From positions 124,001 through 188,000 of the forward strand of contig CAJNOJ010000119.1 of assembly GCA_905250025.1 (NCBI GenBank): a DNA stretch of 64,000 nucleotides, given 5' to 3'. Positions 1-23,313 of this stretch are shown here, piece by piece. The notes under the pieces were generated by a model. That model was not told the origin of the DNA. It did no database searches and was given only the letters and a program-made list of their open reading frames with translations. The position numbers and the translations under genes are program-made. The stretch's first letter is position 1. Each line of letters starts with the position of its first letter. The stretch is from Adineta ricciae. Taxonomy: Eukaryota; Rotifera; Eurotatoria; Adinetida; Adinetidae.

Positions 1-1208
1 GAAAGAGAGAGAGATTGTGAATATTTTTTCTTCATTTAAAATAATATAAATATACATATACGTCTAATCAGTCTTGAAATAACACTATGATCATAGAGGT
101 ATCAGCAACTGCTACGTTATTATTATATGTTGATCTCTAAATTTTATGTCTTTGAGTCTCAGACGATGTCACATGTTGAATTATATGTTATTCTAAATTT
201 GTGCTTGTAAGAAGAACGTACCGTCAGTCATTTCTGACTAATCATAGGAGCCAGTATATGAAGCAAATGAGAGTATTCTCTGGAAAATGTTACATATACT
301 TTTCGTTACAGCCTTATTTTTTTTTACAATTTGCTGTTGATTTAGAATAATTATGTATGAAAAGACGTAGGTTAGTCAGTATGATCACCGGAAAACTTTG
401 TTATGACACAAATAACGGACCTGAATAAAGACAAATAGAATGAATATCGTCACACGTCACTACCTTTTATTCCATGTATAGTTTCATCTTCGGAAAAGGA
501 TTGCAATTATCGAAGTAATAAACTATAAACTTAAAAAATAAGATCAGGCTTTCACTTCTATAAACATGAACTCCAACGATACGAATATACCTAGAAGGAT
601 ATCTTCATCATTCGTAGTCTTGCTGTGAGGTGTTGCTTATTTGAATGAAATATGTAGATGGTAATGGAATTAATAATGTTGCGTCGTAATATCAGTGTGA
701 GCCTGTCTGCAGGACTGTGGAGTGATGTATATGAAAAAAAGGGGAATCACGTCCCGTATACTGTGTCTAACACACATATATATACGAGCAAGAAAAGAGA
801 ACAGAGAGAAAGAATGGTATCGAAGATAGCATTCTTTCAAATGGGAGAGAAGAGCGATACGTGATCGCTAACAATCAGGAAATCTCGCGAAGAGATTTGG
901 TAGATGCTTTGTAATCTATTTTATACGTAGGGTTTAGGAAATCTCAAGCAAACAATGAGATTTATTGATTTTGATTTCAAAATTTTGGATATTCATATTT
1001 GATAATTACCTACTCAATTAATATTCTTAGATATGCAAACATGATTACTCAACACGGGAATTTTGCTTTGGGAAAAGGAGAGTAGGATTACTTGTGCTTT
1101 GCAGATTCCATAAATGTCAGCTGATGAATAATCGGATGACAGCATACTAGAATTATTTTGTCATATAATAGTACTTGCAAAGTTCTTTTGATAAAGTACA
1201 TTTGAATT
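1..1208. other. Intergenic upstream region
   Basis: AT-rich sequence before the first GPCR gene. It begins with a short GA-rich tract. I see no open frame with splice-site support and no domain-like translation. A 68-codon frame at 658-864 is probably chance. Confidence 0.5.
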
Positions 1209-2272
1209 ATGGCATCTTGGGCAGCTATTAGTCAATCCTATGCTCGGTACGTAGGTATACCCCAATTTTGTCTTGGTATTTTGGGCAATCTAATGAACAT
1301 ATGGATATTCATTCATGAACTAGTTCACCGTCGAACTCCCTGTACATTGTATTTGTTAATGGCCTCTTCAACTGGTTTAATACAGATGATGAGTGGTCAG
1401 ATTCCACGTTTTCTCATTCTTGGTTTCAATGATGATTTAACTCGAGTGTCGTTAGTCTGGTGTAAATGCCGTCAATTTCTTATTGCCACATTTGGTGGAA
1501 TAGCATTGACGTTTCAATGCCTAGCTACCATTGATCAGTTCTTAGTTACATCTCGCAGTGCTCACATACGACAATTCAGTCAGATCAAATGGGCTTATCG
1601 TATTTCAATCGGTGTCTTCGCCGTATGGATTTCTCAAGGCATTCCATTTTTAGTATTCAATCAAATACAGTAAAGTTATTCTTGTGGTCTTTCTTTCATC
1701 TATTCTACTTTTAATATCATAGATCTGGTACGTGCATCATTGGTAATTGGATTTTGAATATGTATTGGTCGTATGTTTACTTTCTTGGCCTTCTCACAGC
1801 TACATCTATTACTGTAATGGTAACTTTCGGTGTCCTTGCATATCACAATATGCATCTATTGAAAAATACTGCACGATTACATAGTGCTGATCAACAGTTG
1901 ACTACAATGATTTGTATGCAAGTGATTATTGTTGTAATTAGCATAGCAGCGTATGGTGGTTATAATGTTTATTCATTAGCAACAGCGAGTACACTCAAAG
2001 ATGCAGAACAAAAAGGAAAAGATTTAGTTGCTTTTACAGTGACAAGTCTTTCGGCTTTTTTGAATTATGGTGTAAGTGAGAGATGATTTCTAAAGTTTCA
2101 ATCACTTGAGATTGATATTTGTTTTTTGTTTTTTTTTTAGAGTAGTTTCTATGTATTTTTCGCTTCGTCAAGTCATTTTCGTCAGCAAACAAAAAAGTAT
2201 TTTTGTTGCTGCTGGAGATTTCAGCAAATAACACCAGCAGAAGTGGCCACTACACACATAACACGTCGATAA
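1209..2272 (+). CDS. Rhodopsin-like G-protein-coupled receptor
   Basis: Predicted seven-helix receptor of 313 residues, no close orthologue recognised. Three exons: 1209-1669, 1723-2071 and 2141-2272, all GT-AG and frame-preserving. Helix 1 carries the GILGNLMNIWIF motif typical of class A receptors. A cysteine (VWCKC) precedes helix 3. The usual DRY box at the end of helix 3 is replaced by ATIDQF, a form I associate with divergent rotifer receptors. A loop cysteine (GTCII) could pair with the helix-3 cysteine. Helices 5, 6 and 7 follow, and the tail is cysteine-rich (FCCCW), suggesting palmitoylation. Ligand unknown. The start is the first ATG before helix 1 and leaves a very short extracellular N-terminus. 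Bdelloid genomes carry many such receptors, so an orphan, probably peptide- or chemo-sensing, role is likely. Confidence 0.85.
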
Positions 2273-2314
2273 ATTTCTAAGTTGTGTAGTCAAATGAGAA
2301 TATACTTTTACATA

Positions 2315-2949
2315 TCAACTTGTTTCGTTTGTAGTTTTCGAATGTGATGAAGGGAAATAAATGATCGAGGATGCCTGTTCATCAGCTTGGCCTAGTTCAT
2401 CAACGTCAACATCGATTTCCTCGTTTCGAACAGATTCATTCGTATAATGTTGAGCCGAGTTTTTTTGTTCGTGTGAAGTTGAATACGAGAAATTGTTATT
2501 CCTCATATCCTTCTCAAGAGAAACGATCGTTTGAAAGATTTTCTTCATCACGGATAATCCTACTCACATGATCATCACTTTCAGAAGTTGATGATTCATA
2601 TAGAGCTGATCTCGATCGTGGCATAGCGGATGTTTCTTTTGCTGATTTAGTCTTTGGTTTTGGATCATGACAGACAAAGACAAAATCTATGACACTCGAT
2701 CAAAATCGATCGATTTCGAAAGATGATTTTACCAGAATAACAATTCCGATCGGCATCTTTAGCTGCAATCGGTAAAAGATCACCACTCCCTCGATAGATG
2801 ACAACACATCGTCCATGAATCAATTTAATTGTCTTTTTCAAAGCTTTTCGCTTGCATTTTACTGTTGTCCGGCAATATCTTGAATCAACCAAATATTCAC
2901 TATCAGATTCCGATGTTGTAGAAAGTTCGTTAAGATTATAAATATTCAT
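2315..2949 (-). CDS. Unrecognised 177-residue protein with acidic Ser-rich tail
   Basis: Three-exon model on the minus strand: 2949-2733, 2686-2568 and 2512-2315. Both junctions are GT-AG and keep frame. The N-terminal half holds a basic, cysteine-containing segment (SRYCRTTVKCKRKALKKT, then HGRCVVIYRGSGDLLPIAA) that may be a small fold. The C-terminal half is Ser/Glu/Asp-rich and looks disordered (STSESDDH, then EEIDVDVDELGQ). There is no signal peptide or membrane helix. I do not recognise the family. The intergenic stretch at 2950-3506 is shared with the divergent FN3 gene, so the two may be co-expressed. The gene ends 43 bp from the 3' end of the convergent GPCR. Confidence 0.6.
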
Positions 2950-3506
2950 AATGAAAACTTAGATTTCAACATGCATGTTTGAATAAAAAAGAAAGAAAGA
3001 AAAGCAAACAGTCCCGCAACTAGTTGTCAAGACAATCGAAAAGTACTGACATCTGTCAAAGAGAAGAAAGATGACATAATTCCAATTAATTAAAAGTGTG
3101 TTTAATGAATTCGAAAGCATCAGTGAATGTGGATTAGAATCGTAATTAATAGATTGAAGAATGGAAGATGTCATTAAATTATTGCTTAGCAACTCGGAAG
3201 AGAAAAAGGGAACAATGAAATAACAATCGAAAAAGAAAGTTAAAGAATCAGAAGAAAAATCACTCTTTTACATTTAGTTTTCTTTTGTTATTTGATCAAT
3301 CATATCTCACACTAAGTAATGAAAAGCTTTCTGTACATGAATCAGAAACTAGATCATTGATATTCTCTCGCTTCTGTGAGAAATCTCTCATGAAGTTCTT
3401 TTGATTTGTTTTAGACGAAAGAGTTGAGTCTGCGGAAGTTTTGCTTACACAATCGCTCTCTCACTTGTCTTTTGTTTCTATACTGATAGAATAAGAGACA
3501 GCCACT
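2950..3506. promoter_or_regulatory. Divergent intergenic region between the minus-strand gene and the FN3 giant
   Basis: 557 bp separating two start codons that face away from each other, so it must hold both promoters. No specific binding site is claimed. It carries A/G-rich tracts near 2990-3005 and 3180-3260. Confidence 0.4.
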
Positions 3507-6500
3507 ATGGGTTGTGGTGCCTCGGTTAAATCAAACGCTGATAAGACCAATCCTTCGAATTCTAATGGTCTAAAGAAGAAAACTGATAAACCAATTTCCG
3601 CAGGTTCGCTTAATTACTAAGGCTTCTTTCTTTTTCGCCATCGAAAATTTACATAATGCTACGTACAATATCTTAATTACAAATTTCTTTTCTTTTCTAG
3701 TTCCCAATCTTACGGTTTCACTACAAGGACACGGCTTCACACACAACGAACATGATGACACTGTTCTAATTCATGTGATCGAAATCATCAATGGATCATT
3801 TGCGGAAAAAGCATCGAAACTACGTATCGAATGTGACAATACCGTGGAATTCAAAGTCAACGGAAAAGACGAATACGATATCATCCAAGTTTATAAAGAT
3901 GGTAATGATTATTATCCAGTTAAATATGGTTGCCAGTTACTAAACATCAAAAATCGCACTGCGCCGAAACAACGGCGAATTCCATTTTCATTCGATTTGA
4001 ATCAACCGGAGATCGAGTTATATTTCTGTGTCATTCCTTCATCTCAACGTGAATCTATCATCAAAGGTCGGAAATATCCAAAGATCTACTGTGAAAAAAA
4101 TTGCCTTAAACTTCATCAAAACGATATTAAATTTCAGTTAACTGACGAAAGACAAAGTCAAAAAGTGTACATGCATCAAACAGATACTGTGCAAATCGAA
4201 TGGACATCTCAACGTCTTTACCGAATCGAAGAGAAGAAATATTGTCCGGTATCCGGCGGATTTTATACTGTTGAACAACCGAACGAGAAGAGATTAAATC
4301 GATTTTCAACAAAAGGAAGTTTTGTGAAGACATTCAATGACTTGGGCATGTCATTTCTCATTCGTTATACCGAACAAAACGAAATTCATGATGTCATTGT
4401 ATGTATTGTCAATGAAAAATACAAAGTGAAACATGTGGAAATAACGGATGAAGAGATTCAACCGAATATTTTGTGGATTGAACAAACAGATTGGGTAGTG
4501 TTTGATTGGAACACCAAACGGAAACATTCAATTGTTCAAATCGAACCATTTTCAGTTGACTCGAACACGAATCGATCGATTGAAGTTTGTTTTACTGTTT
4601 TAAACAAACAAGTTTGTTTCTCATGATACATTTTTAGCTTAAAACACCTGAAGAACACTTTTTCTGGCCAAATGATTCAACACGTCGAGGTTATATGCTT
4701 CATCAATTTAACGAAACGGGTGTTTTCTGCTATAAAACAACAAGTAATCAAATTGGTACGATTATTGTCGAAGCGCGTCAAACTTTGCATCAAATACCTG
4801 TCGTTCCCGACCAAGCAAGTAAAAGCGAAACTACGATTGTGCAAATTGACAGAGACTCTACTGATTTTGTCTTCTAGTTTATGAAATGAACACGAATGGT
4901 GTCGTACAATTCAATTGGTTAATGGATCCATCAGGTGACAAAACGATTTTATTCACTCTCGATCCACTGTCATCGGTTGCACCGCACGCAATTAACGGTG
5001 TCGATGGAGTATTCAAATGTGGTGAGTAAATTTGTCAGTTGTCATGATTCTCTTGAGTTTGTTAAGTAGCTAATTGATTTAATTTATGCCGAGAGATATT
5101 CAGTACGTGCTAAAAATATTTTATTATTATTCATAGTGTAAAATAAGTCAGAAAGAAAAACAGGAATGTTGTCCTTTAGGAGTACGTAGCGAAGAATCGA
5201 TTGTCATAGTAACTATATTGAGTTTTAAATGCTTTTACATTTTGATTGAATCGAATCGAAAAACGGGCTATTGTTAATAAAAAATAATAGTTACGGGTGT
5301 AAACTATTATAATCAAGTTTCCTTTTAACTTGTGAGTATATCTTTTGAGATATTTTAAGAAACTATGTCGACGTATGTTTACATCTCTTTCGGGCTTTCC
5401 GTTAGAAAAGAAAAAGATAAATATTGGCAAGCAGGAAATGACATTGAACAGCCATTGTCTGAATGAGTACACTAATTTGTTACTGTAACCTTGGAAATAT
5501 TAAATACATCCATAGTTACTCTTAATTATGTACATTTCTAGCTGCACATAAATGTGTTCGAGCTGACGCAGTGATTCAACGCTATCTGTATACATGTGAA
5601 ACATTACTTCTCAATATTCCTCAACATGGCCTTTATAATTTTGCTTATTCGGAAGATCCAAATGTGCCTCTTTTGAGTATCATCGTTGAAAACGACATAG
5701 ATGTAAGATATATCTAATTAGAAATCTATGCGTATATTGTTCTCGCTTTGATAGAAACATACGGTTGTCTATAATGAATTCAATGTTTTCGAACCTCCAA
5801 CGTTGATCATCAACCGTAATGATCAAGTTTGGTTTGAGCCATCATCATCAGCGAAAGTTGAAACAATTTATCAAACGGATGAATTCGGAGAGGAACTCGT
5901 AGTTGACCGACCAGTTTTCCGGCCTCAAGAAAAAAGCGTCAATTTCTTTATGAAATCATTTCCAGAGACGGGCATTTTCTATTTTTCCACGGCGAATGAT
6001 GAGAAAGACGAAACCCATCCAGTCGCGATCATTGTCTTACCGGACGTACGTTTTCATTATCGAACAGTCGGAAAGAACGCGTTCGATAACAAACCAATCA
6101 TAACTGATATCAATGACTTTATCATTTGGAAATTTGAAGAAACCATCTCTCATAATGTGGGATATATCCTATCAAATGATAGATTACAAGATTTAATCGC
6201 TTGCCACGATCGAGCTGTTCCAGGACGATATCGACAATGTCTTGGTATTGAATGTATTCAATCGGGAACATTCTTTTTCGCTAATCCAGGTTAGTTTAAA
6301 GGATGTCCGTTCTTGTGATATGCATTTGCTTTTAGATTTCGAACGTGTTACTGGTTCGACTGAGGTAAAAACTTTTTCAAACGAAAAGAACAGTGTTAAT
6401 TACGATGTTTTGTTAAAAGGATCGACTTGTAGCGACAATTATTGTTGAGCCACATTTTAGCCAAAATTGCCTTGTGGTTGGTAATTATGATTTCGTACCT

Positions 6501-9500
6501 TCTGTTCTCCATATAGCGGAAGTAAGGCGCATTGTTTATTTGCTGGACTCAGTAACACCATTGATCACTTTAGAATGATACTGTTTCATGGGTGTTAGCA
6601 AATCCTACTCAAAATGATCGAATCTATGTCCGATCGGTTGATGATAACGAAGAAATTGATGATGTAAATGTGAAATCGGATATTCAGCTCTCAGTAAACT
6701 TTTTTCTATTACTTTAGAACGCATTGATTAATCGAAATATCACGAAATTCATTCACAATGTTCAGCATTTACATACATTCCACCAAACAGGAGAGTACAT
6801 CGTTCGATCAAATCGTTTTCAACAAACAGCTACTGTCTTTGTGCATTCAGAAAAAACAATCAAAGATCAAAGTAAATGATGATTTGAAAGTCAAAATATT
6901 CTGTCATTCGCCTCTGGTTCCCAATAGAAAAACGCGTTCCGCCGCCGCAGTTCAACGAAGAACTCGATACGATCAGTCCACTCGGTGCACGGGTTCATCT
7001 CACTTGTCCTAGTCGACATGCGAGTATTTATTATACGCTGGATGGAAAACCTCCGACTCAGCGTACTGCAAATGTCCTTGTAAGCTTTTGTTCGATGAAG
7101 ACATCAATGATTATCGTTTGATTGTAGCGATACGACGACGATGAAGGAGTTATTTTGAATGAAAACGGTCTGCATGTTTTACGAGCGTGTTCAGTTGAAC
7201 CTCAAAGAATTTCAAGTTTAATTGTGACAAGCAGGTATGGAATTGTCGTTTGATTTCACGAACAGCTTTATAAATATTTTGGTTCGTGTTTCAGTCCAAC
7301 GTTTATACTGGATGAGGCAGAGAGAGATGAGCTGAACGTAAGTTTCTCTCTCGCGTAAACTAATTAGCACAAATCTTTTGTACATATTAGAAACGACTGG
7401 ACACACAATCATCGAGTGATCAAAATATTCCGGAAGATATACCAACTTCATACAAAGTTATTCTTTCTTCTGCATTGAAACATCCGAATAAATTATATGG
7501 AATGATTGAAATCGATCCAGCTGATTACATGAGACACATTGATCATTTCGAATTGTATATCAATGATGTTGCGCAAAAGGAAAATATTACAACGCGCAAT
7601 ACTCAATTTTCAGCCAGTGGCTTTGCAGCGGGAGAACAATACGAAGTTTATGTTGTTGCTCATCCAAAATCAAATGCACCCGACGGACGATCGATCGCAT
7701 CGAACAAACGAGTAACTCATCAATTTTCGTCTTAACTAATCACATGGTGATGTTTTAGACATTTGAAGTGCAACGAGAAACTCAGGACGGTGCACCACTC
7801 ATCAGTTTGGCTACATCGGAAAATCAAAATGGATTAACTGTCATGTGGGCACATATTCACGATCCAGTCAGTGAATATAATGTTTATATCAATGATACTA
7901 AAGCACAAACAGTACGTGAATTGGTATAGAATGAAATTTGCCTGTACTGTGTTTTCTTTTTCACTTTTAGATAACTAAAAAAGATTTCAACGAATTATAT
8001 ACTATTCGATTTCAAGACATTGAACATGGTCGAAAATATTTGATTTATGTTGAAGCAAAGATGGAAAGTATGATCGAATTGTCTGTTTTAATTAAGCTTC
8101 GCTATTTATCCGTTGTCTTTTTATTTAGACGGAAAAGAAATTCGTAAATCAAATATCATTCCTATTACTCCGCCGATCGAAACGACTGTCAAGGAGCCAA
8201 CCAAAGACCAATTCTTTCCATATATAATCACCGAATACGAACAAGCACCAGATGATGTTCCTCTTGAAAGTAAGTCTGTTGTTTCTGTCGAGTGTCTCTC
8301 GTAGCACAGAGGTTGTTCGCCATGCTAAGTAGATAACGCTTTTTTTCTTAAGTCCTATCCGTACACATTGACGAAGAGACTCGCAGGAATAGAATTGAAA
8401 GCACTGTTATGGTTGCTATCAAAACAAACGCTTTTTTTTGTCCATTTTCTAGAGGGTTCGAAACGGTTATCCACTCCAAAATTATCTGTTCAAAAATCTC
8501 CCTCCTCTACTTCTTCACCTTCTACTCCTGAGGTCTCTTCGTCACAAGGTACCCATTTAACTGATATGGTTAATCCAATAGTAAGCACGAGTGAAATCCG
8601 ACCTCAGAAAGATGATCAGATGACTAACAAAACTGAAACGAACGGAAATGATCAACGAAAAGCATCGACTAGTGATGAACTACTAACCAAAGAAACGTCG
8701 AAATCAGAACGAAAAAAGAGTGAACAACAATCGAAAGAAGATACGGAACCGGCACAAGTCAATGATCCATACCTTCAAGCAAAAATTCTCTTGAAAAGAT
8801 TAACAAAAACGATCGATGATCGTATCAAACAACGCAATCCAACCTATGCAGACGCAGAACCAGCACCAGTCGATCATCAAACTCTATCACCTGAAACTTC
8901 ATCAGCATCTGATACCTACACAACGAAACTTCCACCAAAGCCTCCACGTCGGTCATCTAAACTGAATAAAACTGCTCAAAAACATGATTACATTAAATCT
9001 AATGACGCTTCATAGTTTGACACTTCTGATTCCTCTTCTTTTTTTTTTCTTTTTACATTATCTAATCGCTTTTGCATCTATTAATTTCTTCGTACATACA
9101 TATAGCTTCATCGTATAAAGGAAATGCTTGAAATAACGAATTAAATCATGTTTATGCATGAATTTCTCTCATTTTTTGTTTCGCAGATGCTCCAAGTGCT
9201 GAACCCATACAAAGACGACCAGACTCGTTTCGATATGCAAGCGAACCAATTGTATGCAGTTGATCTTCAAAATCCAAATCTGTATTGTCATCTTATGTTT
9301 CGTTTAGGCTGCTGCTGTGGGAGATGCAGCTCCAACTGTATCATATAAGCCAAATCCTGGTGGTATTACTCTTTTCTGGAAGAAGAAATCCCCATCAGCG
9401 GATGATTCTGTGGAAAACTATCGAGTACGATGAAAACTACGCGTGATGTATAGATACAATATGTGTTGTTATTTAGATCGTGGTTGACAAGAAACCGTAT

Positions 9501-12500
9501 GGCGAATTAGTATCACCATTGGCTGATCCAAAAGTTCAAGTTAATTTACCATCAGGAAAACACGAATGCTATTTGGAAATTATTCCCAAAAATAAAAAAC
9601 ATGAAGGTTACACATCAAATATTCTCGTACGTTATTTTAGTATGTGCTTTCATGTGAATTTATGGATTTTTTTTACTAGAATGTGGAGGTTCCGCCTGGA
9701 AGTGGTTTGAAACATACTACAAAACAAAAATCAGACCCATCGGATGAATCCACTGATGTATGTCGATTGATTTATTTCTTCCACTCTCTTCATTATTTGT
9801 GTGTCAACAATATTGTAGAAAGCTGTCGTCGAGAAAGAACTTCCCATACCGAAATTGAACGTTTCTACCATCAGCGGAACAGCAATTCGTGCGAATTGGT
9901 ATGGAGATCGGCCACTTCCTGCTGGGGTGTTCACTGCAATCAATGAAGTTCACGTACGCGGTCCTGAATTCTCGGAAAATATCAAAAGTGATGAAAGGTA
10001 AGTCACCGACTATCTCTTCGTTCATTTTTTCTTTAATTATATTGAAATAGTTCAACTGATGAAGATTATGTCGAGCACATCTGGAATGTTTCGAATTCTC
10101 CATTGGAAATCTCTGGCATACTCGATCGACATGAATATTTGTAAGAAAATTCGACAAACCACTGACGACATGAAGATAAATTGTTCTATTCTAGGGTGTT
10201 TGTTCGAACTTATTATCATCTTCAAGGATCCAACGATACAAAATATTTGATAACAGAATCGAACAGAGTGAAAACTAAGCGAATTGATCCGTTGATCGAG
10301 TTATTACCAAGACCAGTATTGAAAGTTACCAAACTTGGTGTACAAACGGCGAATCTATCATGGAAACTTGATGATACGATCGATCCATCGTTAGTCAAAG
10401 GTTATCGTATTATTCTCAATTCGAAACCAACAGAAATTCTCTCAGCTACTCAACATGAATATGAATTGCGTAATCTTAAAGCAGGTAAAACTCCTTCGAA
10501 TAAAAATGGCCAAAAAATCACTATGATTTGTATCTGTAGGTTCAACAAATGAAGTTCAAGTTTCGGTCACATCTCATCCAGACTTTGTTGATGAAAAAAT
10601 CTCCGAACCAATCCGTATTGTATGTCCGAAACATCCTCATCCTCCAAAGATTCAGTCGGTTATTGCCGAGAAACCATTTTCAATTCGTATCCAATGGGAC
10701 GCCGATAGTCATGAAAACGATGATATTACAGCGTATCGAACATACCTCAATGGAAAACTTCATGGCGAAGTGGAAAACGACGGCCGACAAATATTCACAT
10801 ATGATTTTACGAAACTAGACGCTGATGTCAAATATTCGATTCATGTTAAATCTCTACTTGGACAGAAGAGATTAGAAGGAAATCGTTACCAATGTGATAT
10901 CGAATCGAATAGTTCCAATGAATTACGATTAAAATGTGCTGTACCACCCAAAGGAACAGTACCACGCGTCGAACGAATGCATTCCAATGGAGTTGATATC
11001 ATTTGGGAAGCACCGGAAGAATATGGAGATGTTAAACTCACTGTATGTTATTGAATTTCGTATCGATGAGATCGAAAGGAAATTATGATTTCTATAGGGT
11101 TATCAAATATTGAATAATGGCCGATCGATTGGCAAAGCATTGCCAGTTGACCGACGACGGGCTTCAATCAGTGATCTGGAACCGGGTCAACGGTATTCAC
11201 TACAAGTTGTACCAATAACAGATCAACCTGGTGGCGTTCTATTTCGAAAAGGAGAAGGTAAACAGAAAGAATTGATTTCCAATAAGTGGACTGAGACTAG
11301 TCTTATTCTTGAATAGAATACGATGCTGATCGTCATGGTCATTATTTGCCAAGTGAAAAACTTGAAATTGATTTTACAGATCTTGTTCAACTTCCTAAAA
11401 AAGTCTGGGAGGAACAGATCGCAGGTCGCTCAGCACTAATTTGTTGGTTACCAAGTAGGTTTTCCTTTTCCTTTCACAACAATCTTTCTTATCATTATTC
11501 TATTCAGTCGAACCATCAACTCCTGCGGAGTGTCAACCAGATGGCTACAAACTGATTCTATGGAATAATAGTGATCTACCACGTGATAAACCAAGAATTG
11601 TTACACTATCAAGTAAAAGATTTGATCAGATCACTAGAATCCAAGTATGAACTCTTCTTTGTCGTTCTTTCTTTTCAGAAGATCAAACTAGTGCACAGCT
11701 AAAAGACCTTCAATCAGATACAAGGTATGAATATCAATTAGAAGCATGTAAAAAGCGACGCCACACAAAAACGAAAGGTATTTTCTATCGTTTTCTAATT
11801 TCAGTATCTGAATGATAGAGAAATGTTTTCTTCGATAGATTCATACAATGTTCTCACAACTTCAGACATCGGATCTTTCACTACAGGCTCACCGCCTGAT
11901 CCACCGATGAATGTGTATATAATCGCATGCAAAAATGCCGATGTTCGTATTGGTTTCGATCCGTTTGTTGAACATAACGCGGAAATCAAAGCTTTACGTA
12001 TCCTATGTGAACCTGCTTCTCCAGAAACGAATGCAAGAGAAATCGTGCAGGATTTTATGCCAGATTCCACCGAATTCATTATTACAAACCTTGCTGAACG
12101 TACCAATTACAACGCGACCATCTATGGTATTACGCAGGAATATTTAGACGATAATCGCTGCCGAGATGTGAAACAATTGCCTAAAAAATTGAAACCATCC
12201 GAATGGTTACCATATAAAACCTTTCAATTCCAAACAAGTGGTTATGAACCGGCAAGTGATATCAAAGTTACTCAAGCGAACATCGAGGCGATTAAACTCG
12301 AATGGACTTTGGCGAAAGTTTATGGTTCAACTGAATGTGTTCAACAAGTTCTTCGTTGGCAGTTAGAACCGGGCGGTAAAGAACAGTCGTTAGACTTAGA
12401 TCGAAGCACAACCAAGGCAACGATACCTGGACCGTTAATATCGGGTTTATATAAAATCTGTCTAGATACAGTTCTTAGTGTAAAAATCAATCTGGAAGAG

Positions 12501-14979
12501 GGTGATGATGAATCAGATCGAAAAGAAACTCGTTTAACAAGTAATATATCAGCATCCGTACGTTTCCATGCGCCAGGAACGTGTGAACAACCAGAGATTT
12601 ACTTAACTGGCTATACAATGAACACAATTGACTTAGCTTGGAATAAACCGGGCATGTTTGACATTGTTGATCATCCGGAAAGAACGAATGAACAATTGAG
12701 AATTCATCGACGATTGATCGGATATCGAATTGATATAAATGATCGAAAACACAACGAATTAGATGAAGACCAACGGCAATGTGTTTTGACCGATTGTCAT
12801 CCAAGTGAAGAATACAAAATTCGACTAGTTGCACAAACTATTGTTCAACAAGCCAATATGGCAAATACGGTAGAAAAAGAAAAACTAAAATATATTCAAA
12901 ACTCTTGATGTTGCTTTTAATAGATCACTGATGGAGATAAGAAAGGATTTGAACCAGATGAAACCCCATCGAAAATATTGAATGTGCGAACATTGAAAAG
13001 TGAAGGTACGGCGAAAGGAGAAAAAAGAGATTTCATTATGAATTGTTTTTTTCTTAACTTAGATTTTCTTCGATCGCTTCGAGCTAATTTTGAATTTATT
13101 CACGATACTTCGATGAGCCGATCACTTGTAGATCCAAACAATCCTTCACCATTAGGAAAGATCAATGTTGAATGGAAGATCGGTCGTTCAAAGAATATCT
13201 CACATTTTATCTTACAATGGCGGTCGTCAAAAGATTTACGTATTCAAGAAAAAACCCTCGCTTGTAACGAAACGTCCGCTATCATCGGTAATTCATATTC
13301 TACACACATCTTCCAACAAAATCTTCTTTCTTTCAGACGCATGCGATGAAAAACATTTCTACGTTATCGATCTGATCATTGTGACAGATAACGGTAATCG
13401 ACATCAATATGAACAATTAACCGTACCTATACCTGGTGTACCCGACGCACCGAAATTGTGGCTTGTTAAAATAAATGATACGAATTTTACTGTCGAATGG
13501 TCTGAACCGAAATCGTATGGAATACCGATCATTGGTTATGAATTATACATCGAAGGAAAACGAAATGGCGATATGATCGAAGTGAAATCACATCAAATAG
13601 ACATACCATCACGTATCAATCGTACTTATCAAGTCAATGTTTGCGCAATTACAAATCATCCACAACGTTCACATTCAGTTATGTCTCAAACATTATGTGT
13701 AATAACGACACCAACAACCGATCTTGTGCCGACAATTTATTACAATAATGACGATGGCAATGCATTGACATTGGATCAAAATATCGCACGCATTATTCCA
13801 GTTCAAATCGAATCGATCAATGAGGAAAGACTTCATGTAGACTGGACATCATTTTTACATACACCGTCAATACGTGCTTACTACGTACACTATACTTGTT
13901 TGAACAATGGAGAAGTGCAAGCAATGAAAATTTCAAAACGAAATCGTCATGCTGTAAGTAACAGATAGAATTTATGGATGTGATCAAGAGATAACGGCAA
14001 TGTTCTTTTCCGAAAGGTACTGCGCGGCCTACGACCAGGTTTTACTTATGGAATTATGGTCATGGCTGTGGATAAAAATGGTGCAGTTTTATATACATCA
14101 GATAAGTCAACTATTCAAATGAATGCACCACCAAATGCACCAATCGTAGCGATACGGTAATCGATCAATAAAAGCCAAAGGCTTCTTATTTTTCCATAAA
14201 CTTTTCTTTTGTAGGGAACGAACACGCACTCGCGTGAAACTCGAATGGCGTGCTGCAACAAGTTACGGCGAGTTTACTGTTGTCGGTTATAAAATATTTG
14301 TCAACAATCGCTTAGCAGCTATTCTCTCACACGATCAGTTAACCTATACATTGACCAATGGTATACCATGTGATGTTTATACTGTACATGTTCAAGCATT
14401 GAGCAGTGAAAAGAATGTTGTTAGTCCAATGTCACGTGGCGTACAATTCACATGGCCGGGTATTCGAGCAGGTGCTCTCAGACGTGTTGACGATGGTCAA
14501 ACAGGAGCCGTTGTTGTTGCATGGGAACATCCACGATTAGAAGACGAAATGGAAAAATTACTTTCATTTGAAGTATGTGAAAATCTGATTGAATAAAGAA
14601 AGAAATTCATTTGTGGTGATTTTCTAGTTGTTTTCGAAAAATCTCATGACGAACATTGTTCAATTACATGGTAAATACGATCCTAGTACACATCAAGCGA
14701 CCATCAGTGGCTTACAAAATGGCAAATATACTGTTTGGGTTGAAATTCAAAGTGAACATTACCGAGTTCAATCTCGAGCTATCACTGTTCTATCAGGTCG
14801 ATCTCTCACCTTATCCAATCGTTCGTCAATGATAGAAACCGCGAAATGTTTCAATAAAAAGCAACAACGGTAAATTCAATCATAAGAAAGATCATAAAAA
14901 TCAATTAAACGTTTGTAGATTTCGTTCACCTGGACCGAATGCACCATCGAATTTGCTTCGACACACTCAGTACTCTTAA
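3507..14979 (+). CDS. Giant N-myristoylated cupredoxin-like/FN3 repeat protein
   Basis: One gene of roughly 35 short exons, traced through GT-AG junctions, coding for more than 2,000 residues. Exon 1 (3507-3601) starts MGCGAS, matching N-myristoylation (Gly2, Ser6) with Cys3 as a likely palmitate site. There is no signal peptide or membrane helix, so a lipid-anchored intracellular protein is inferred. The first third (to about 6890) has at least six repeats of a beta-rich unit ending in patterns such as ETGVFCYKTT...GTIIVEA and ETGIFYFSTA...VAIIVLPD. This resembles a cupredoxin fold without most copper ligands. At 6930-7210 there is a chitobiase-C-terminal-like domain (ASIYYTLDGKPPTQR). From 7390 on come about ten or more FN3 domains with WxxP/GYxIxxNG motifs. 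A Ser/Lys-rich linker lies at 8453-9015. Most introns are about 50 nt; one is 520 nt (5022-5541). I know no named orthologue. Confidence 0.75.
6517..6521 (+). other. Putative 5-nt microexon inside the FN3 giant
   Basis: The preceding exon ends at 6480 in phase 1 and the next clear exon starts at 6574. Joining them directly gives an immediate stop. A five-base exon (cggaa) with a perfect upstream AG and a downstream GTAAGG restores frame and adds V-A-E. The alternative is an earlier donor at 6477, which also keeps frame and skips the microexon. Confidence 0.4.
8453..9015 (+). other. Possible alternative terminal exon of the FN3 giant
   Basis: An exon opening at the acceptor 8451-8452 reads in frame through a Ser/Thr/Lys-rich, proline-containing stretch (e.g. 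LPPKPPRRSSKLNK, an SH3-ligand-like motif) to a TAG at 9013-9015. A phase-matching donor at 8549 (after SSSQ) would instead splice to the exon starting 9187 and continue into the FN3 array. Skipping the exon altogether (donor after 8269 to 9187) is also in frame. Two isoforms are therefore plausible: a short one ending in the linker and a full-length one. Confidence 0.45.
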
Positions 14980-15742
14980 AAGTAATCCATCGATGTGATA
15001 TTACCTTGATAAAACTTCTTCTCTTCCATCGAACTATCGAATCTTATCAATTCTTTCTTTTTTTTTCTTTCCATCAAATGTATTTCAACCAAAATAAACA
15101 TTTAGATCTCTTTTATACGAACTTTCTTTTTCAAAACATTTATTTTCGTAAATTATATCTTTGTTTGTGCCTTTGTTCGCTCTTGTACGTCTGAGTGCTT
15201 GTGGGCTGTCTTCTTATATTGTATTAACAACAATAAAAACAAACGCACCCAATTTTGATTCCAGTTCTCTGCCAACTCAGACCATGTTTCTCGATAAATA
15301 TCCAACAGATGTGTTGATTAGCTCAAAAGCATGTATACGGATTTGTCATGAATAAGTCACATCAGAGTTCAATGTACCGAAAGACTGTTGATGACTTGTT
15401 TAATGCCAGAGATTTATAACTACTTTCTTTCCTTCTCGCTCTTGGCATTGAGGGTGTGGGTAATGGAAAAGACTCGCCCTGTTGTTTATTTCTCGTTCTC
15501 TTTCTTTCCTTCTTTTCTTCCACTTTTTATTTGTTCTGTGTCGCTTTTTGATCATATATTCCAAGCGTAGTTACTGCAACTAACGTCTATTTCTTCAATC
15601 GTAGACAACTTTTTTCTTGCGGATATAGAACAACTAGCGACAAAAAAACATTTTCCAGCTGTGTTTCATCCAATGTAAGTTTGAGGATTCGTTCATTGTT
15701 AGTTCCATCATTCTGTTCTCTTCATTTGTAGAAAAACAAAAC
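14980..15742. other. FN3-giant 3' region and D-LDH upstream region
   Basis: No coding exon seen. AATAAA signals at 15093-15098 and 15232-15237 probably end the upstream transcript. An acceptor-like TTTGTAG ends at 15731, twelve bases before the dehydrogenase start. A GTAAGT donor lies near 15677, so a 5'-UTR intron or a trans-splice site is possible. Confidence 0.45.
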
Positions 15743-16836
15743 ATGACTCAACGTAAAATTCTCTTCTTTGATTCGAAATCGTACGATGAAAAAACGTTCA
15801 AAGACGCTCTGAAAGCATTGAATGGTCAAGACAAACTACATTTCACATTCTTGGAAAGTAGATTGAAAGAAGAAACAATTTCCGAAGCACAAGGTTACGA
15901 CGGGATCTGCATTGTCAACAGTGATGCACGAAACTCGAATGTTATGGATAAAATCCATGAAATATGCCAATCAGTGAAAATTATCGCCTTACGAAGTGCT
16001 GGCCACAGCGGTTCATCAGTGGAAATTGTCAAAAAACATGGCCTTCATGTATGTCAAGTTCCAACTTATTCGCCACACGCTGTAGCTGAACATTCAGTGG
16101 CACTTTTACTGTCATTAAATCGGAATATGCACCGAGCGTATTTTCGAACGAAATTGCACAATTTCAGTTTGGATGGTTTGGTTGGTGTTGACGTATTTGG
16201 TAAAACGGTGGGAATTATTGGTACTGGAGGCGTTGGTATGTGCGCAGTAAAGATTTTTCGAGGTTTTGGCTGTAAAGTATTGGCTTTTGATATTAAACCC
16301 GATGAAAATTTTGCGAAACAAAATGGATTTGAGTATGTTTCGATGGATGATTTGCTTCGACAAAGTGATATAGGTAAAATCTCGATTTCATTTTCAATAG
16401 AAGCATATTTATTCTTTCGTTTAGTTTCATTGTATGCTCCACTTAACGAATCAACCTTTCATTTAATTAATAAGGAAGCATTGGACAAGATTAAACCAGG
16501 GGCTATGTTGATCAATACAAGTCGTGGACCATTAGTCGATTCGAAAGCTCTTGTCGAATGTTTGAAAGCAGGCAAATTACGTGGTGCTGCTTTGGATGTT
16601 TATGAAAATGAGGAAAAATATTTCTTCAATGATTTTAGTCAACAAGTATGACGTCTGAATGCATTATTTCATTTGAATATGATCGTTTTGTTTAGGTTAT
16701 GGACGACGATACTTTGGCGTGTTTAATTTCAATGCCGAACACGATTGTTACATCTCATCAAGCATTTCTTACGGAAGAAGCCTTGAAAACCATTGCTGAA
16801 TCAATTGTCAAGAGTTTACTCGATTTTTTCAAATGA
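15743..16836 (+). CDS. D-lactate dehydrogenase, LdhA type, copy 1 (divergent)
   Basis: D-isomer-specific 2-hydroxyacid dehydrogenase that interconverts pyruvate and D-lactate with NADH, cytosolic. Three exons: 15743-16373, 16425-16645 and 16696-16836. It aligns along its length with the bacterial fermentative enzyme LdhA. Visible are the NAD-binding GTGGVG loop, the substrate tyrosine in VPTYSPHAVAEH, the catalytic Arg in NTSRGPLVD, Glu in DVYENE and His in TSHQAFLT. The conserved RCAGFNNVD block is altered to RSAGHSGSSVE, and the C-terminus is about 20 residues shorter than in copy 2, so substrate range may have changed. It sits 744 bp upstream of copy 2, with introns at the same two positions, so the pair is a tandem duplication. 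Resemblance to bacterial enzymes plus acquired introns suggests old horizontal transfer. Confidence 0.88.
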
Positions 16837-17580
16837 AACTTGAAGGAAGACGTCATCTATTCGCAAGTATATTTTATGAAAAACATATCCCTGTCTACTT
16901 AACATTTGGTGTATATACCTTTTAAATCTCAATCTGTAGCTGAAATCTTATTTAGACAATAAATTATTTATTCATCGACCATCTGTATATTGTTTTATTT
17001 TTTTAGTTTAAGCAAATGCCGTCGTGGAAATAAGAATTGTCTGTTATTTAAGCGAAAACATCGGAGTAGAATGAATCACCTTCGAGAATTCGATTTCAGA
17101 CAAGTCTTCATCATAGATCTCAATAGCAAATGTAATCGAAGACTTGAACAGGAGTACAGCACAACTGTTGATAGGAATGATAATGAGTCCCTCTTTTTGA
17201 CTTCTAATTCAGTCTTTCGTGATGTATTAGATTATCTCAAGATACCTTTCAGTTTAATTTCATTTTCTCACGAAGATGTTGTTTGCGAAAGAAAAACATT
17301 TCTTCATAGGATTCGTATACCATATGTAGGCCATGGTTTTTCTCGTTAGAGTGCTCTAACTCTATAGATACCGTCATTCTCTATGTTGAGTACATTTCTT
17401 TTCTCGTTCTTCTCCACAACAACTATTCTGTTTCGTGATGTTTTCAGACATGACGACAACATTTCCATAAACGACATCATCATCTTCCATTTTGGTAGTG
17501 CCACTAACTGTTCTCCAATAGCAAGCGAATGAGAGAACTCGATTGGTATGATTCATTTTCTTGTCTTGTAGATTAAACAA
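16837..17580. other. Spacer between the D-LDH tandem copies
   Basis: Holds an AATAAA at 16959-16964 for copy 1 and a TTGTAG acceptor at 17566-17571, nine bases before the copy 2 ATG. A 119-codon plus-strand frame at 16990-17349 has no recognisable domain and unconvincing codon use. I treat it as chance. Confidence 0.4.
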
Positions 17581-18730
17581 ATGTCACTTCGAAAAGTAAT
17601 TGTCTTCGATTCGAAATCGTACGATGAAAAAACTTTTAAAGCTGCATTAAAAAACTTGAATGGCCAAAATAAACTTCGTTTTACATTCTTGGAAAGTAAA
17701 TTAACGGAGGAAACTGTTGATGAAGCACTTGGTTACGATGCTATTTGTGTTTTTGTCAACGATATTGTTAATCAAAATGTTATCGAACAGCTACACAAAA
17801 CATGTGCCACAGTAAAGATGATTGCCTTACGATGCGCTGGATTTAACAATGTTCATTTGGAAACAGCAGAAAAATATGAGCTGAAAGTTTCACGTGTACC
17901 ACGTTATTCACCGTATGCTGTCGCAGAACATTCGGTTGCTCTTCTATTGTCATTGAATCGAAATATGCACCATGCGTTCTTTCGAACTAAACAACATAAT
18001 TTCAGTTTGGATGGGTTAGTCGGTATCGATTTATTTGGCAAAACGGTGGGAATTATCGGAACTGGTGGTATTGGAATGTGTGCGATTAATATTTTTCTTG
18101 GCTTTGGCTGTAGAGTACTAGCGTATGATATTTATCCAAATGAAAATGCAGCAAAAGAAAAAGGTTTTGTATATACAACAATGGACGAATTGCTGCGAGA
18201 AAGTGATGTCGGTATGGAAAATCGCCGAATTCGAATTTTACATATATAAAGACTTGATTCTATTTTTAGTTTCAATCTACGCACCATTACTTGATTCAAC
18301 ATATCATCTGATTAATAAAGAGGCTTTGGACAAGATGAAACCGAGAGCAATGTTAATTAATACAAGTCGAGGTGGTTTAGTCGATTCGAAAGCTCTTCTC
18401 GAATGTTTAAAATCAGGCAAATTACGAGGTGCAGCATTAGACGTTTATGAAAATGAAAAACAATATTTCTTCAATGACTACAGTCAACAAGTATAATCGA
18501 TAAATCTCTTCGAAAGTCTCCTGATCGTTTTTATCTTTCAGGTTATGGAAGATGATACACTCGCACGTTTAATTTCAATGCCGAATACAATCGTTACATC
18601 TCATCAAGCATTTCTTACCGAAGAAGCTTTGAAAAACATCGCTGAAACCACTGTACAAAGTTTATTGGATTTCTTCGATGGCAAACCATTGAATGAGAAT
18701 AACGAAGTTAAAGCACCGCCGAAAAAATGA
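17581..18730 (+). CDS. D-lactate dehydrogenase, LdhA type, copy 2
   Basis: Same enzyme family as the upstream copy and closer to the bacterial consensus. It keeps the RCAGFNNV block, the GTGGIG nucleotide loop, the substrate Tyr in VPRYSPYAVAEH, catalytic Arg (NTSRGGLVD), Glu (DVYENE) and His (TSHQAFLT). Three exons: 17581-18211, 18270-18490 and 18542-18730. Intron positions and phases match copy 1. The C-terminal tail ends in KAPPKK. Likely role: cytosolic pyruvate/D-lactate interconversion, perhaps in anaerobic or stressed conditions (inference). A poly(A) signal lies at 18915-18920. It is probably the functional enzyme of the pair, while copy 1 has drifted. Confidence 0.9.
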
Positions 18731-20598: not shown

Positions 20599-23313
20599 AT
20601 GGCGATTAAACGTAAAGATTTTCAAAAGACATCATCCATTATACTCGAATTTTTACTTAAACTACCTGATGAAGAAACAAGTTCACGTTTGCGCGATACA
20701 CTTCTACATGGTCTTCATTTTCTTCAACAATACTATTTGATCTTACAGAAACGTGATAAAGAACAAAAACCATTACAATGGACGATTGAACGTGGCCTCA
20801 GTCCTCTCACACCATTCCGTGAAGCGCCCGATAAATTCGAATGGCCATGGATTGACGTCGAATCTAATAAAGTCAAGCAAACATTGCCGAAACACTCATT
20901 AAATGATTTCGTTACCCTATCACCGATCATCATGGCTGTACGGGAAGGAGATTTACGCTATGTCAAAGAACTACTAAATTCGAAGCCGGAGTTAATCGAT
21001 CGTGTGGATGCATTCGGTCGGGATTTATTAACATATGCTGTTCAATATCAACAGATTAATATTCTACGTTACCTATTGTTAGAATGTAAACCATCACCGA
21101 ATATAAATACTCAAGCAAACGATGGTTCAACATGTCTACATCGGGCATGTTACAGCGATGAGACTCAACAATGCGATGTGGACATCGTTCGATTGCTATT
21201 GGAAAATCATGCTGATGTGACCAAACAAGATGTACATATGCGGTCACCATTGCATTGGGCTGTTCTCGCCGAAAATACAGATTGTTTGAGGCAGTTGGTG
21301 GGATTCAACGCTGATGTACATGCAAGAGATGCAGATGGAATGACGGCAGCGATGTGGGCTTGTCATCTCGATCGGCATGAACACTTCAAAGTAGGATTTT
21401 GACTTTGATGAAAATGAATTAAATCTCCTGTGACTAGGAATTATCACGACATATGAGTGGAAAACTAGAACAAGATAATGATGGTCGAACTTGGATTCAT
21501 CATAGTGTTCGTAAAACTGAACCATTGGAATGCTTAAGGTTGTTGTTATCGGCCGAATCGATGAAATTACGTGATAACGATGGACGAACATGTTTACATG
21601 TTGCTGCTGAACAGGGTTCAGTACATGCATGCCGACTAATCTTTGATATGAATGCTCAGTTTAATAACCCAACATCTATACACGATGGAGATAAGTACCG
21701 TCAAACGCCACTTCATTTAGCAACTAAAAACGGTCATGCACGTGTACTCAAAGAACTTTTAGATCATGGTGCTGATCCACATCTTCAGGGTGGGTGACAA
21801 CATTTAACAATAGATTCCATTTTTTATTTTTACTACTTTAGATATCCATGGTGTATCTGCGTTTGATTATGCGCAAAATCGTGGTCTTTACTTTTGTCGT
21901 AGTGTGTTTGAAGTTTATCTACGCGATAAGAATAACAACAATTATGACAGCCAATCTCTACCAACACGTAGTTTTAATAGTACTAGTAATAATGCTGTAA
22001 GGAGAAATGGATCTGATGTGGCACCAACGCCGCCTATGAATGGCCACGCAAGATTCATTCGTCACAGTAATCGTCGTCTGATGACAGAGTCATTGCCCCA
22101 ACCAATGCGCTCATCACCCACCCTTTCCAATGAACAATTTGCGCATACAACTACAGCAGCAACAATTCAACAGAATAGCCTTCCTAAAACCGTAATGTAT
22201 CTTGATGATGATGATGATGATGCAGATAATAACAATGCTGAAAATAACCATGATGTCAATCGACAACGGTATCGGCCACCTTCTTCGACTACAACGAATT
22301 CAACAATGGCACCTCCAGTGAAACCACGGAAAAGTTCGACAACACCAAATAGTTCACTTGTCAACACATCCAAACCACGACGAAAACAGGAGCATCACCA
22401 TCATGTTATAATCACATCTGCTCATTCCGATGGCGACGAACCAAACAGTCTCGAAGGTTATGCCGGTCAAAGTGACTTCGATGATGACAATGACGATGAA
22501 CCATGGCAATCCGCTTGGTCTGCTCGGCCTACTTCTCGTCTATCGTCACGTCACCACGATGATCGGTTACAGCAGCAACAACAGCATCAATCCAGTACAA
22601 CGTTTCGCCGACCACATTATAAACAATCGAAACAGGCCAATCGACCATCGATTCATGATGAATATCGTTATATTGAAGAACAACAACAACCACCACCACA
22701 GCAAGCTGTAACATCCGCAAGGACCAGACAACGAAACCGTTCAGCAGCCACAAAAGATTTTCCACAACCATCATCAGCTTATCTTGGATCTGGTAATAGT
22801 AATCCACCAGGAACAAGTCGATTAAAATCTGGCTCCAAAACAGGTTCGAATGAAACAAGTCCTACTCTCGATTTAACCGTCGCTGGACAAAAAGTTTTTC
22901 GAAATCGACAACAAATGGATACCTATTATTCACAACAATCTATTCCGCCGAGTAACATGCGGCCACCAAGTGGTCGTCTGAAACCGATTAGCAGTGCTAA
23001 ATCGACTTCGTCCTATACCGATGAGTTTTCACCCATGTCACCCAAAACATTAGAGGACGTTACGAATAATGTCAAACCAACATCAGCACTGCCGACCAGA
23101 GCACATCTTTATAAGAAACGACTTGCTCCATTGACGAATAGTAATGAATTAGTGAACAAAAAGCATGCAACTCGTTCGTCAATGGAACAACAGACGTATA
23201 TGATTGATGATGTACCATCGGATAGATCCGAAGAAGCAAGTGGTGGAACAAGTGCAAGCGGACGAGACATTCAGTCATTAAGCGGCAGTGATAAGCGCTC
23301 AAAACATCATTAA
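20599..23313 (+). CDS. Ankyrin-repeat protein with long disordered tail
   Basis: An 871-residue protein from three exons (20599-21390, 21438-21789, 21842-23313). The first 110 residues form a unique helical N-terminus. From about residue 115 to 440 there are roughly nine ankyrin repeats. Clear ones include DGSTCLHRACYSDE, HMRSPLHWAVLAEN, DGMTAAMWACHLDR, DGRTCLHVAAEQGS and YRQTPLHLATKNGH. The remainder (about 430 residues) is low-complexity, rich in Ser, Gln, Asn and Arg, with a poly-Asp run coded by a GAT repeat and proline motifs. The layout, repeats then a long disordered tail, resembles ANKRD55 or inversin-class scaffolds, but I cannot assign an orthologue. No membrane segments. Likely a cytoplasmic or ciliary scaffold. 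Confidence 0.85.
22202..22222 (+). repeat. GAT trinucleotide microsatellite (coding poly-Asp)
   Basis: About seven GAT units in frame inside the ankyrin protein tail, giving consecutive aspartates. It is prone to length variation between alleles. Confidence 0.8.

What the first reader, a model, noticed from the sequence alone, without database searches (positions are those of the whole stretch)
3507..14979. Giant membrane-anchored cupredoxin-like plus FN3 protein with no described counterpart known to me
The start MGCGAS predicts myristoyl/palmitoyl anchoring, and the protein lacks a signal peptide. FN3 arrays of this size are usually extracellular, so a lipid-anchored intracellular one with repeated cupredoxin-like units and a chitobiase-type domain is unusual. 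It could be a large scaffold at ciliary or cell membranes.
Basis: partly seen in the sequence, partly recalled or inferred. Interest (0 to 1): 0.75.

Follow-up and report, generated by a model that had tools for sequence, protein, structure and literature searches.

The report
Lipid-anchored giant cupredoxin/FN3 rotifer protein
A bdelloid rotifer gene encodes a giant chain of about two dozen small beta-sandwich domains, probably pinned to the inner face of a cell membrane by fatty acids on its first residues; it belongs to an unstudied animal protein family also found in a sea slug and an orthonectid worm.

Summary
Positions 3507-14979 (+) are one gene: 38 exons, 2871 aa, every intron GT-AG, in a genome identified here as Adineta ricciae or a very close relative. 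The second haplotype copy keeps every splice site and has no frameshift or internal stop. A public A. ricciae protein matches that copy at 99.95% over 2078 aa without gaps. The protein has seven cupredoxin-like domains without a copper ligand set, one GH29D/CHB_HEX-type domain, a low-complexity linker and about 15-16 FN3 domains. By hydropathy it has no signal-like or membrane-spanning segment. MGCGASV is identical in Adineta steineri and Rotaria socialis although the rest of exon 1 diverges, and the Aplysia (sea slug) relative starts MGSGAS: the pattern of ancestral N-myristoylation, with a palmitoylatable Cys3 in rotifers. The other bdelloid duplicate clade lacks this start. Uncharacterised relatives occur in bdelloids, an orthonectid and a mollusc; the mollusc one (and, by eye, the orthonectid one) adds a thioredoxin-like C-terminus. 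Most likely it is a cytosolic, membrane-anchored scaffold or tether; partners, cellular site and the acylation itself are untested. Nine paper searches found no description of it.

The parts
3507..3603 (+). exon 1: N-terminal acylation motif MGCGASVK (3507-3530) plus a variable, low-complexity tail
   Evidence: MGCGASV identical in P0001 and P0002, MGSGAS in Aplysia P0016
3739..6852 (+). seven cupredoxin-like domains, aa 46-786; boundaries approximate, set by eye
   Evidence: coordinates; boundaries judged on the alignments
6945..7232 (+). GH29D / CHB_HEX_C_1 / Fn3_assoc-type domain, aa 799-878
   Evidence: PF13290 25 bits (cutoff 22), PF13287 23.5 bits (cutoff 23); coordinates
7517..8057 (+). 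two FN3 domains before the linker
8269..9188 (+). low-complexity Ser/Thr/Lys-rich linker, aa 1131-1296, mostly exon 8453-8947; its splice donor (8948) is the least certain junction
9347..14744 (+). C-terminal FN3 array: 13 units found in the window protein, a further one only weakly in A. steineri
14745..14979 (+). C-terminal tail and stop TAA
3492..3494 (+). in-frame TAA 12 bases before the ATG, against a continuous upstream coding frame
   Evidence: the allele has a 2-base deletion beside it

Best explanation
A cytosolic, peripheral membrane scaffold or tether. Shown: one gene with a constrained N-terminal acylation motif, no hydrophobic signal or membrane-spanning segment, and a chain of seven cupredoxin folds without a copper ligand set, one GH29D-like fold and about 15-16 FN3 folds, broken once by a low-complexity linker; the same order in a mollusc and, more loosely, an orthonectid. 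Inferred: glycine 2 is myristoylated and cysteine 3 palmitoylated, holding the N-terminus at the inner leaflet of a membrane; the rest extends into the cytosol as a long jointed arm whose domains bind proteins, linking the membrane to a filament, axoneme or protein complex. After a duplication in early bdelloids one copy kept the anchor and the other lost it, giving an anchored and a free form.
For: MGCGASV identical across Adineta and Rotaria, while exon 1 as a whole has 8 nonsynonymous and 1 synonymous difference between alleles, none in MGCGASVK; MGSGAS in Aplysia. No hydrophobic segment. In Aplysia the window's cysteines are kept at the background rate (9 of 36; overall identity 25.6%) while 27 of 32 tryptophans are kept; N-glycosylation sequons at chance (25 against 22.6 +/- 4.2). 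Aplysia FN3 units match Pfam's RIMBP2-like model at E 4.1e-26, A. sp. clade B P0003 at 7.8e-11; RIM-BPs are cytosolic (recalled). dN/dS 0.172.
Against: Acylation, location and partners are untested. Clade B (0 of 6 sequences with their own start) and Intoshia lack the motif as read or annotated, so the anchor is dispensable to part of the family. Within bdelloids cysteines are kept somewhat above background (26-31 of 39-40 against 49-60% identity; 22 in all seven bdelloid rows), and in Intoshia 9 of 34 against 21%, so some structural cysteines are not excluded. The window's own RIMBP2-like match is below cutoff (21 against 27 bits). No expression data. A scaffold role is the default guess for such arrays, not a shown activity.
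Confidence: 0.55

Rival explanations
1. Ciliary version of the scaffold: the protein ties the ciliary membrane to the axoneme.
For: Rotifers, orthonectids and sea slugs are ciliated (recalled); the orthonectid, with a reduced genome (recalled), still keeps it; one Foldseek row is a mouse sperm central-apparatus chain (rank 17, E 4.7e-6).
Against: No expression, proteome or co-occurrence test was possible; the paper search with cilia found nothing; that Foldseek row stands among 46 of 50 multicopper-type rows, has TM 0.17 and rmsd 23 A, and may be a generic beta-sandwich match.
Confidence: 0.2
2. Short isoform or two genes: the frame runs on from exon 18 to a TAG at 9013-9015 that both alleles share, which could end a protein of roughly 1300 residues made of the cupredoxin half.
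For: Both alleles keep the stop; the stretch after 8947 resembles coding sequence in P0001 and P0002 (RSSKL/RSSTL); the Didymodactylos prediction P0013 (partial) begins after the linker.
Against: P0012 joins the halves across the equivalent of 8947|9187 with 0 gaps; clade B, Aplysia and Intoshia predictions also run through. All of these are gene predictions, so an additional short isoform is not excluded.
Confidence: 0.15
3. Extracellular FN3 protein whose signal peptide lies in an unseen upstream exon.
For: Large FN3 arrays are commonly extracellular (recalled); a CAG at 3499-3501 could be an acceptor, so an upstream exon is not strictly excluded; cysteines are kept somewhat above background within bdelloids.
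Against: In-frame TAA at 3492-3494 and a 2-base deletion there in the allele; MGxGAS start in five sequences from four species; cysteines and sequons at chance against Aplysia.
Confidence: 0.07
4. Copper or redox protein: the cupredoxins carry electrons or buffer copper.
For: Cupredoxin fold; a thioredoxin-like C-terminus in Aplysia and, by eye, Intoshia; a CxxHxC motif in the fourth unit of bdelloids.
Against: Two ligand patterns were sought in the cupredoxin parts of window, Aplysia and Intoshia: aromatic-x-C-(2 to 4)-H found once in window and once in Aplysia, both off the ligand strand by eye; C...H...M found 0 times. Aplysia's thioredoxin-like part reads WCLSSQ, without CxxC, and bdelloids lack that part.
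Confidence: 0.05

Closest known systems
Uncharacterised LOC101845075 isoform X2, Aplysia californica (P0016, 3383 aa)
   Same: MGxGAS start; seven cupredoxin-like units (by eye), PF13290/PF13287 domain, low-complexity linker, 16 FN3 units
   Different: extra C-terminal thioredoxin-like region; Ser, not Cys, at position 3; 24.5 and 27.5% identical over the two BLASTP segments
A3Q56_02948, Intoshia linei (P0008, 3004 aa)
   Same: cupredoxin, GH29D-like and FN3 order
   Different: no MGC start as annotated; C-terminal extension that looks like Aplysia's thioredoxin-like part by eye; about 21% identical
Single-domain cupredoxins (plastocyanin, halocyanin, amicyanin)
   Same: fold and sequence profile
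   Different: here seven in tandem, without the ligand set, in a probably cytosolic FN3 protein
RIM-binding proteins, titin and other intracellular FN3 proteins
   Same: FN3 units of the family match RIMBP2-like and titin FN3 sequences; fibronectin, contactin and receptor phosphatase FN3s are matched too
   Different: no SH3 domain found; cupredoxin head and acylation motif
Ephrins
   Same: animal cupredoxin-type fold tied to a membrane (PMC6485061, passages seen); an ephrin chain is rank 30 of the structural comparison
   Different: ephrins are extracellular with one such domain; this protein has no signal-like segment and an FN3 array

Membership tests
FN3 protein (PF00041) | scores above the Pfam gathering cutoff | tested here: met
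   124.8 and 131.9 bits against 25
CHB_HEX_C_1 / Fn3_assoc | scores above the Pfam gathering cutoff | tested here: met
   25 against 22 and 23.5 against 23 bits, both narrow; 31.4 and 30.1 in Aplysia
Cupredoxin fold | matched by structure and by sequence profile | tested here: met
Copper-binding cupredoxin (type 1 site) | His-Cys-His-Met ligand set | tested here: not met
   patterns in the cupredoxin parts of window, Aplysia and Intoshia; positions of two partial matches judged by eye
N-myristoylated / palmitoylated protein | MG start, small residue at position 6, Cys3 | tested here: met
   MGCGASVK by inspection, conserved in Adineta and Rotaria; the rule is recalled
N-myristoylated / palmitoylated protein | the modification itself | not testable with these tools
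   needs labelling or mass spectrometry
RIM-binding protein | SH3 domains beside FN3 | tested here: not met
   no SH3 hit in Pfam scans of the window pieces, P0001, P0003, P0008, P0016
Multicopper oxidase / ceruloplasmin | paired cupredoxins with trinuclear copper ligands (HxH motifs) | tested here: inconclusive
   46 of the 50 Foldseek rows shown are laccases, other multicopper oxidases, nitrite reductase or relatives, but with TM 0.16-0.23 over the whole model; no type 1 ligand set; HxH motifs not searched

The most novel reading that the evidence does not exclude
An ancient spiralian, perhaps animal-wide, family of giant cytosolic membrane tethers in which a blue-copper fold lost its metal and was multiplied into a seven-domain membrane-proximal rod ahead of an FN3 arm, with a dead thioredoxin-like tip in molluscs and orthonectids; in bdelloids an ancient duplication split it into lipid-anchored and free forms.
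Probability: 0.4. Interest if true: 0.6.

Novelty: new variant of a known kind. Interest (0 to 1): 0.45.

Why it matters
Among animal proteins known to me (recalled), cupredoxin folds are mostly extracellular or enzymatic (ephrins, ceruloplasmin relatives); a tandem, metal-free, cytosolic and lipid-anchored array would be a new use of the fold. Because bdelloids keep one duplicate with and one without the acylated start, what the anchor does can be tested by comparing natural copies.

Tried and rejected
Continuous reading of 3507-14979: rejected, many stops. First gene model (37 exons, 2724 aa) missed a 29-base exon at 6336-6364 and began the next exon late; corrected from P0001. Linker donor at 8549 given up for 8948 because P0012 and the allele agree with 0 gaps. 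dN/dS over the linker ORF does not tell the frames apart (0.52 in frame, 0.36 and 1.16 shifted).

The protein search with alignment A2 returned only its own first row, so the lack of other animals there is no evidence of absence; no survey of vertebrate, insect or nematode proteomes was possible. Pfam and NCBIfam gave no cupredoxin hit for the rotifer pieces. The exon-6 model has mean pLDDT 57 and is weak support; the exon-2 model has mean pLDDT 69.6 and pTM 0.45, and its last part (residues 240-294) is mostly below 50. Paper searches without a description of the family, judged by their listings. Rfam and tRNA scans of the window: nothing. P0005 (near-duplicate of P0003) and the allele were left out of the tree, which used only the part after the linker. 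Multicopper-type rows fill the Foldseek list, so other folds were barely tested for the rest of the model.

Full report
What is there. The window is G000:C119:124001-188000 of a 130 Mb genome. Positions 3507-14979 on the + strand are one gene. The final model has 38 exons and 2871 aa; 34 of its 37 introns are 46-97 bases long. The other haplotype copy (contig 91) keeps GT/AG at 37 of 37 introns (the donor at 8948, adopted later, is identical), has 0 gapped codons and only the terminal stop, and dN/dS is 0.172 (on the 2738-aa model); exons are 95.5% and introns 89.7% identical, the linker intron left out. One search repeats the stop check on the 2871-aa model. A public protein named Adineta ricciae (P0012, 2078 aa) is 99.95% identical to the allele's translation with 0 gaps and 94.2% to the window's. 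This identifies the animal as A. ricciae or a very close relative, and the splicing of the last 72% of the protein, linker junction included, agrees with an annotation made by others.

The N-terminus. MGCGASV is identical in the window, its allele, A. steineri and R. socialis, and Aplysia begins MGSGAS. Between the alleles exon 1 has 8 nonsynonymous and 1 synonymous differences, none in the first eight residues. That is what an acylation signal on a free tail should look like. An in-frame TAA lies 12 bases before the ATG, and the allele has a 2-base deletion there; an upstream coding exon could join only between 3495 and 3506. Hydropathy shows no signal-like or membrane-spanning segment. In Aplysia the window's cysteines are kept at the background rate (9 of 36) and tryptophans well above it (27 of 32); sequons are at chance. 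Less favourably, within bdelloids cysteines are kept somewhat above background (26-31 of 39-40; 22 in all seven rows). On balance this speaks for the cytosol.

Family history. Eleven bdelloid rows form one clade apart from Aplysia and Intoshia (100/100, part after the linker only). Within it, clade A (window, A. ricciae, A. steineri, R. socialis; 93/99) has the motif in 3 of 3 rows whose start is held, and in the allele. Clade B (six rows, 100/100) begins about 37 residues later, at MASxxxx or MMISTEN. Of clade B sequences with their own start, 0 of 6 have the motif: P0003, P0004, P0005, P0006, P0015 and the genome's own copy on contig 32; P0003/P0005 and P0015/contig 32 are near-duplicates, and only contig 32 was checked in DNA. 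There, no MGC exon is seen in the roughly 600 bases up to a gene that looks like a homeobox gene by eye. P0007 is fused to an unrelated N-terminus; P0012, P0013 and P0014 lack theirs. Since Aplysia has the motif, loss in clade B is simpler than gain in clade A, but Intoshia also lacks it as annotated. The split before Adineta and Rotaria diverged fits the ancient bdelloid genome duplication (recalled). Aplysia's C-terminus is thioredoxin-like (Pfam Thioredoxin E 0.00075 on the fragment, below the cutoff); Intoshia has a similar stretch by eye; bdelloids lack it. Long branches of Intoshia and Aplysia make the outer tree uncertain.

How it likely works. I commit to a membrane-anchored cytosolic scaffold. 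Shown: gene, domain order, conserved acylation motif, no hydrophobic signal segment. Inferred: acylation happens; the arm binds partners; the linker acts as a hinge. If the roughly 23 domains extend at 3.5-4 nm each (recalled), the arm would reach some 80-90 nm. A ciliary site is attractive but untested.

Comparison and novelty. It is a real FN3 protein with a cupredoxin-fold array, but it fails the copper-site and RIM-BP tests. Nine searches of an open-licence library gave no paper on it, judged by listings; of PMC6485061 I saw passages only. Three protein searches were made, with limited reach, so how widespread the family is remains open.

Noticed in passing
window 15743-18727 (+): Two tandem D-isomer 2-hydroxyacid dehydrogenase genes. 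The first scores best with D-lactate dehydrogenase models of NCBIfam, far below their cutoffs; that library holds only bacterial and archaeal models, so this does not show a bacterial origin. The same kind of gene is fused to the Didymodactylos prediction P0013, so the neighbourhood is shared by two bdelloids.
   Followed up: partly
window 8948-9015 (+): The reading frame continues past the chosen splice donor to a TAG kept in both alleles and resembles coding sequence of other bdelloids (RSSKL); possible alternative short isoform.
   Followed up: partly
window 5012-5555 (+), spanning the intron 5022-5541; aa 433-440: A CxxHxC motif (FKCAAHKC) in the fourth cupredoxin-like unit is kept in the bdelloid sequences read but not seen in Aplysia; possible bdelloid-specific metal site.
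   Followed up: no
window 32672-34438 (-): ORF matching the retinol binding protein receptor family, E 4e-50.
   Followed up: no
window 40972-41991 (+): ORF with weak alpha-2-macroglobulin MG2 and bait-region matches, below the Pfam cutoffs.
   Followed up: no
window 20599-23310 (+): Ankyrin-repeat ORF, followed by a long low-complexity ORF without Pfam hits.
   Followed up: no
window 875-16000 against L004/L005: The other haplotype copy aligns over 875-16000 at 93.7% DNA identity, and an older copy lies on contig 32 (L006/L007): the paired structure expected of bdelloid genomes.
   Followed up: partly
P0007 (Adineta vaga): The public gene model is fused to an unrelated N-terminus with PF02373/PF02375 (JmjC/JmjN by recall), probably a prediction error.
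   Followed up: no
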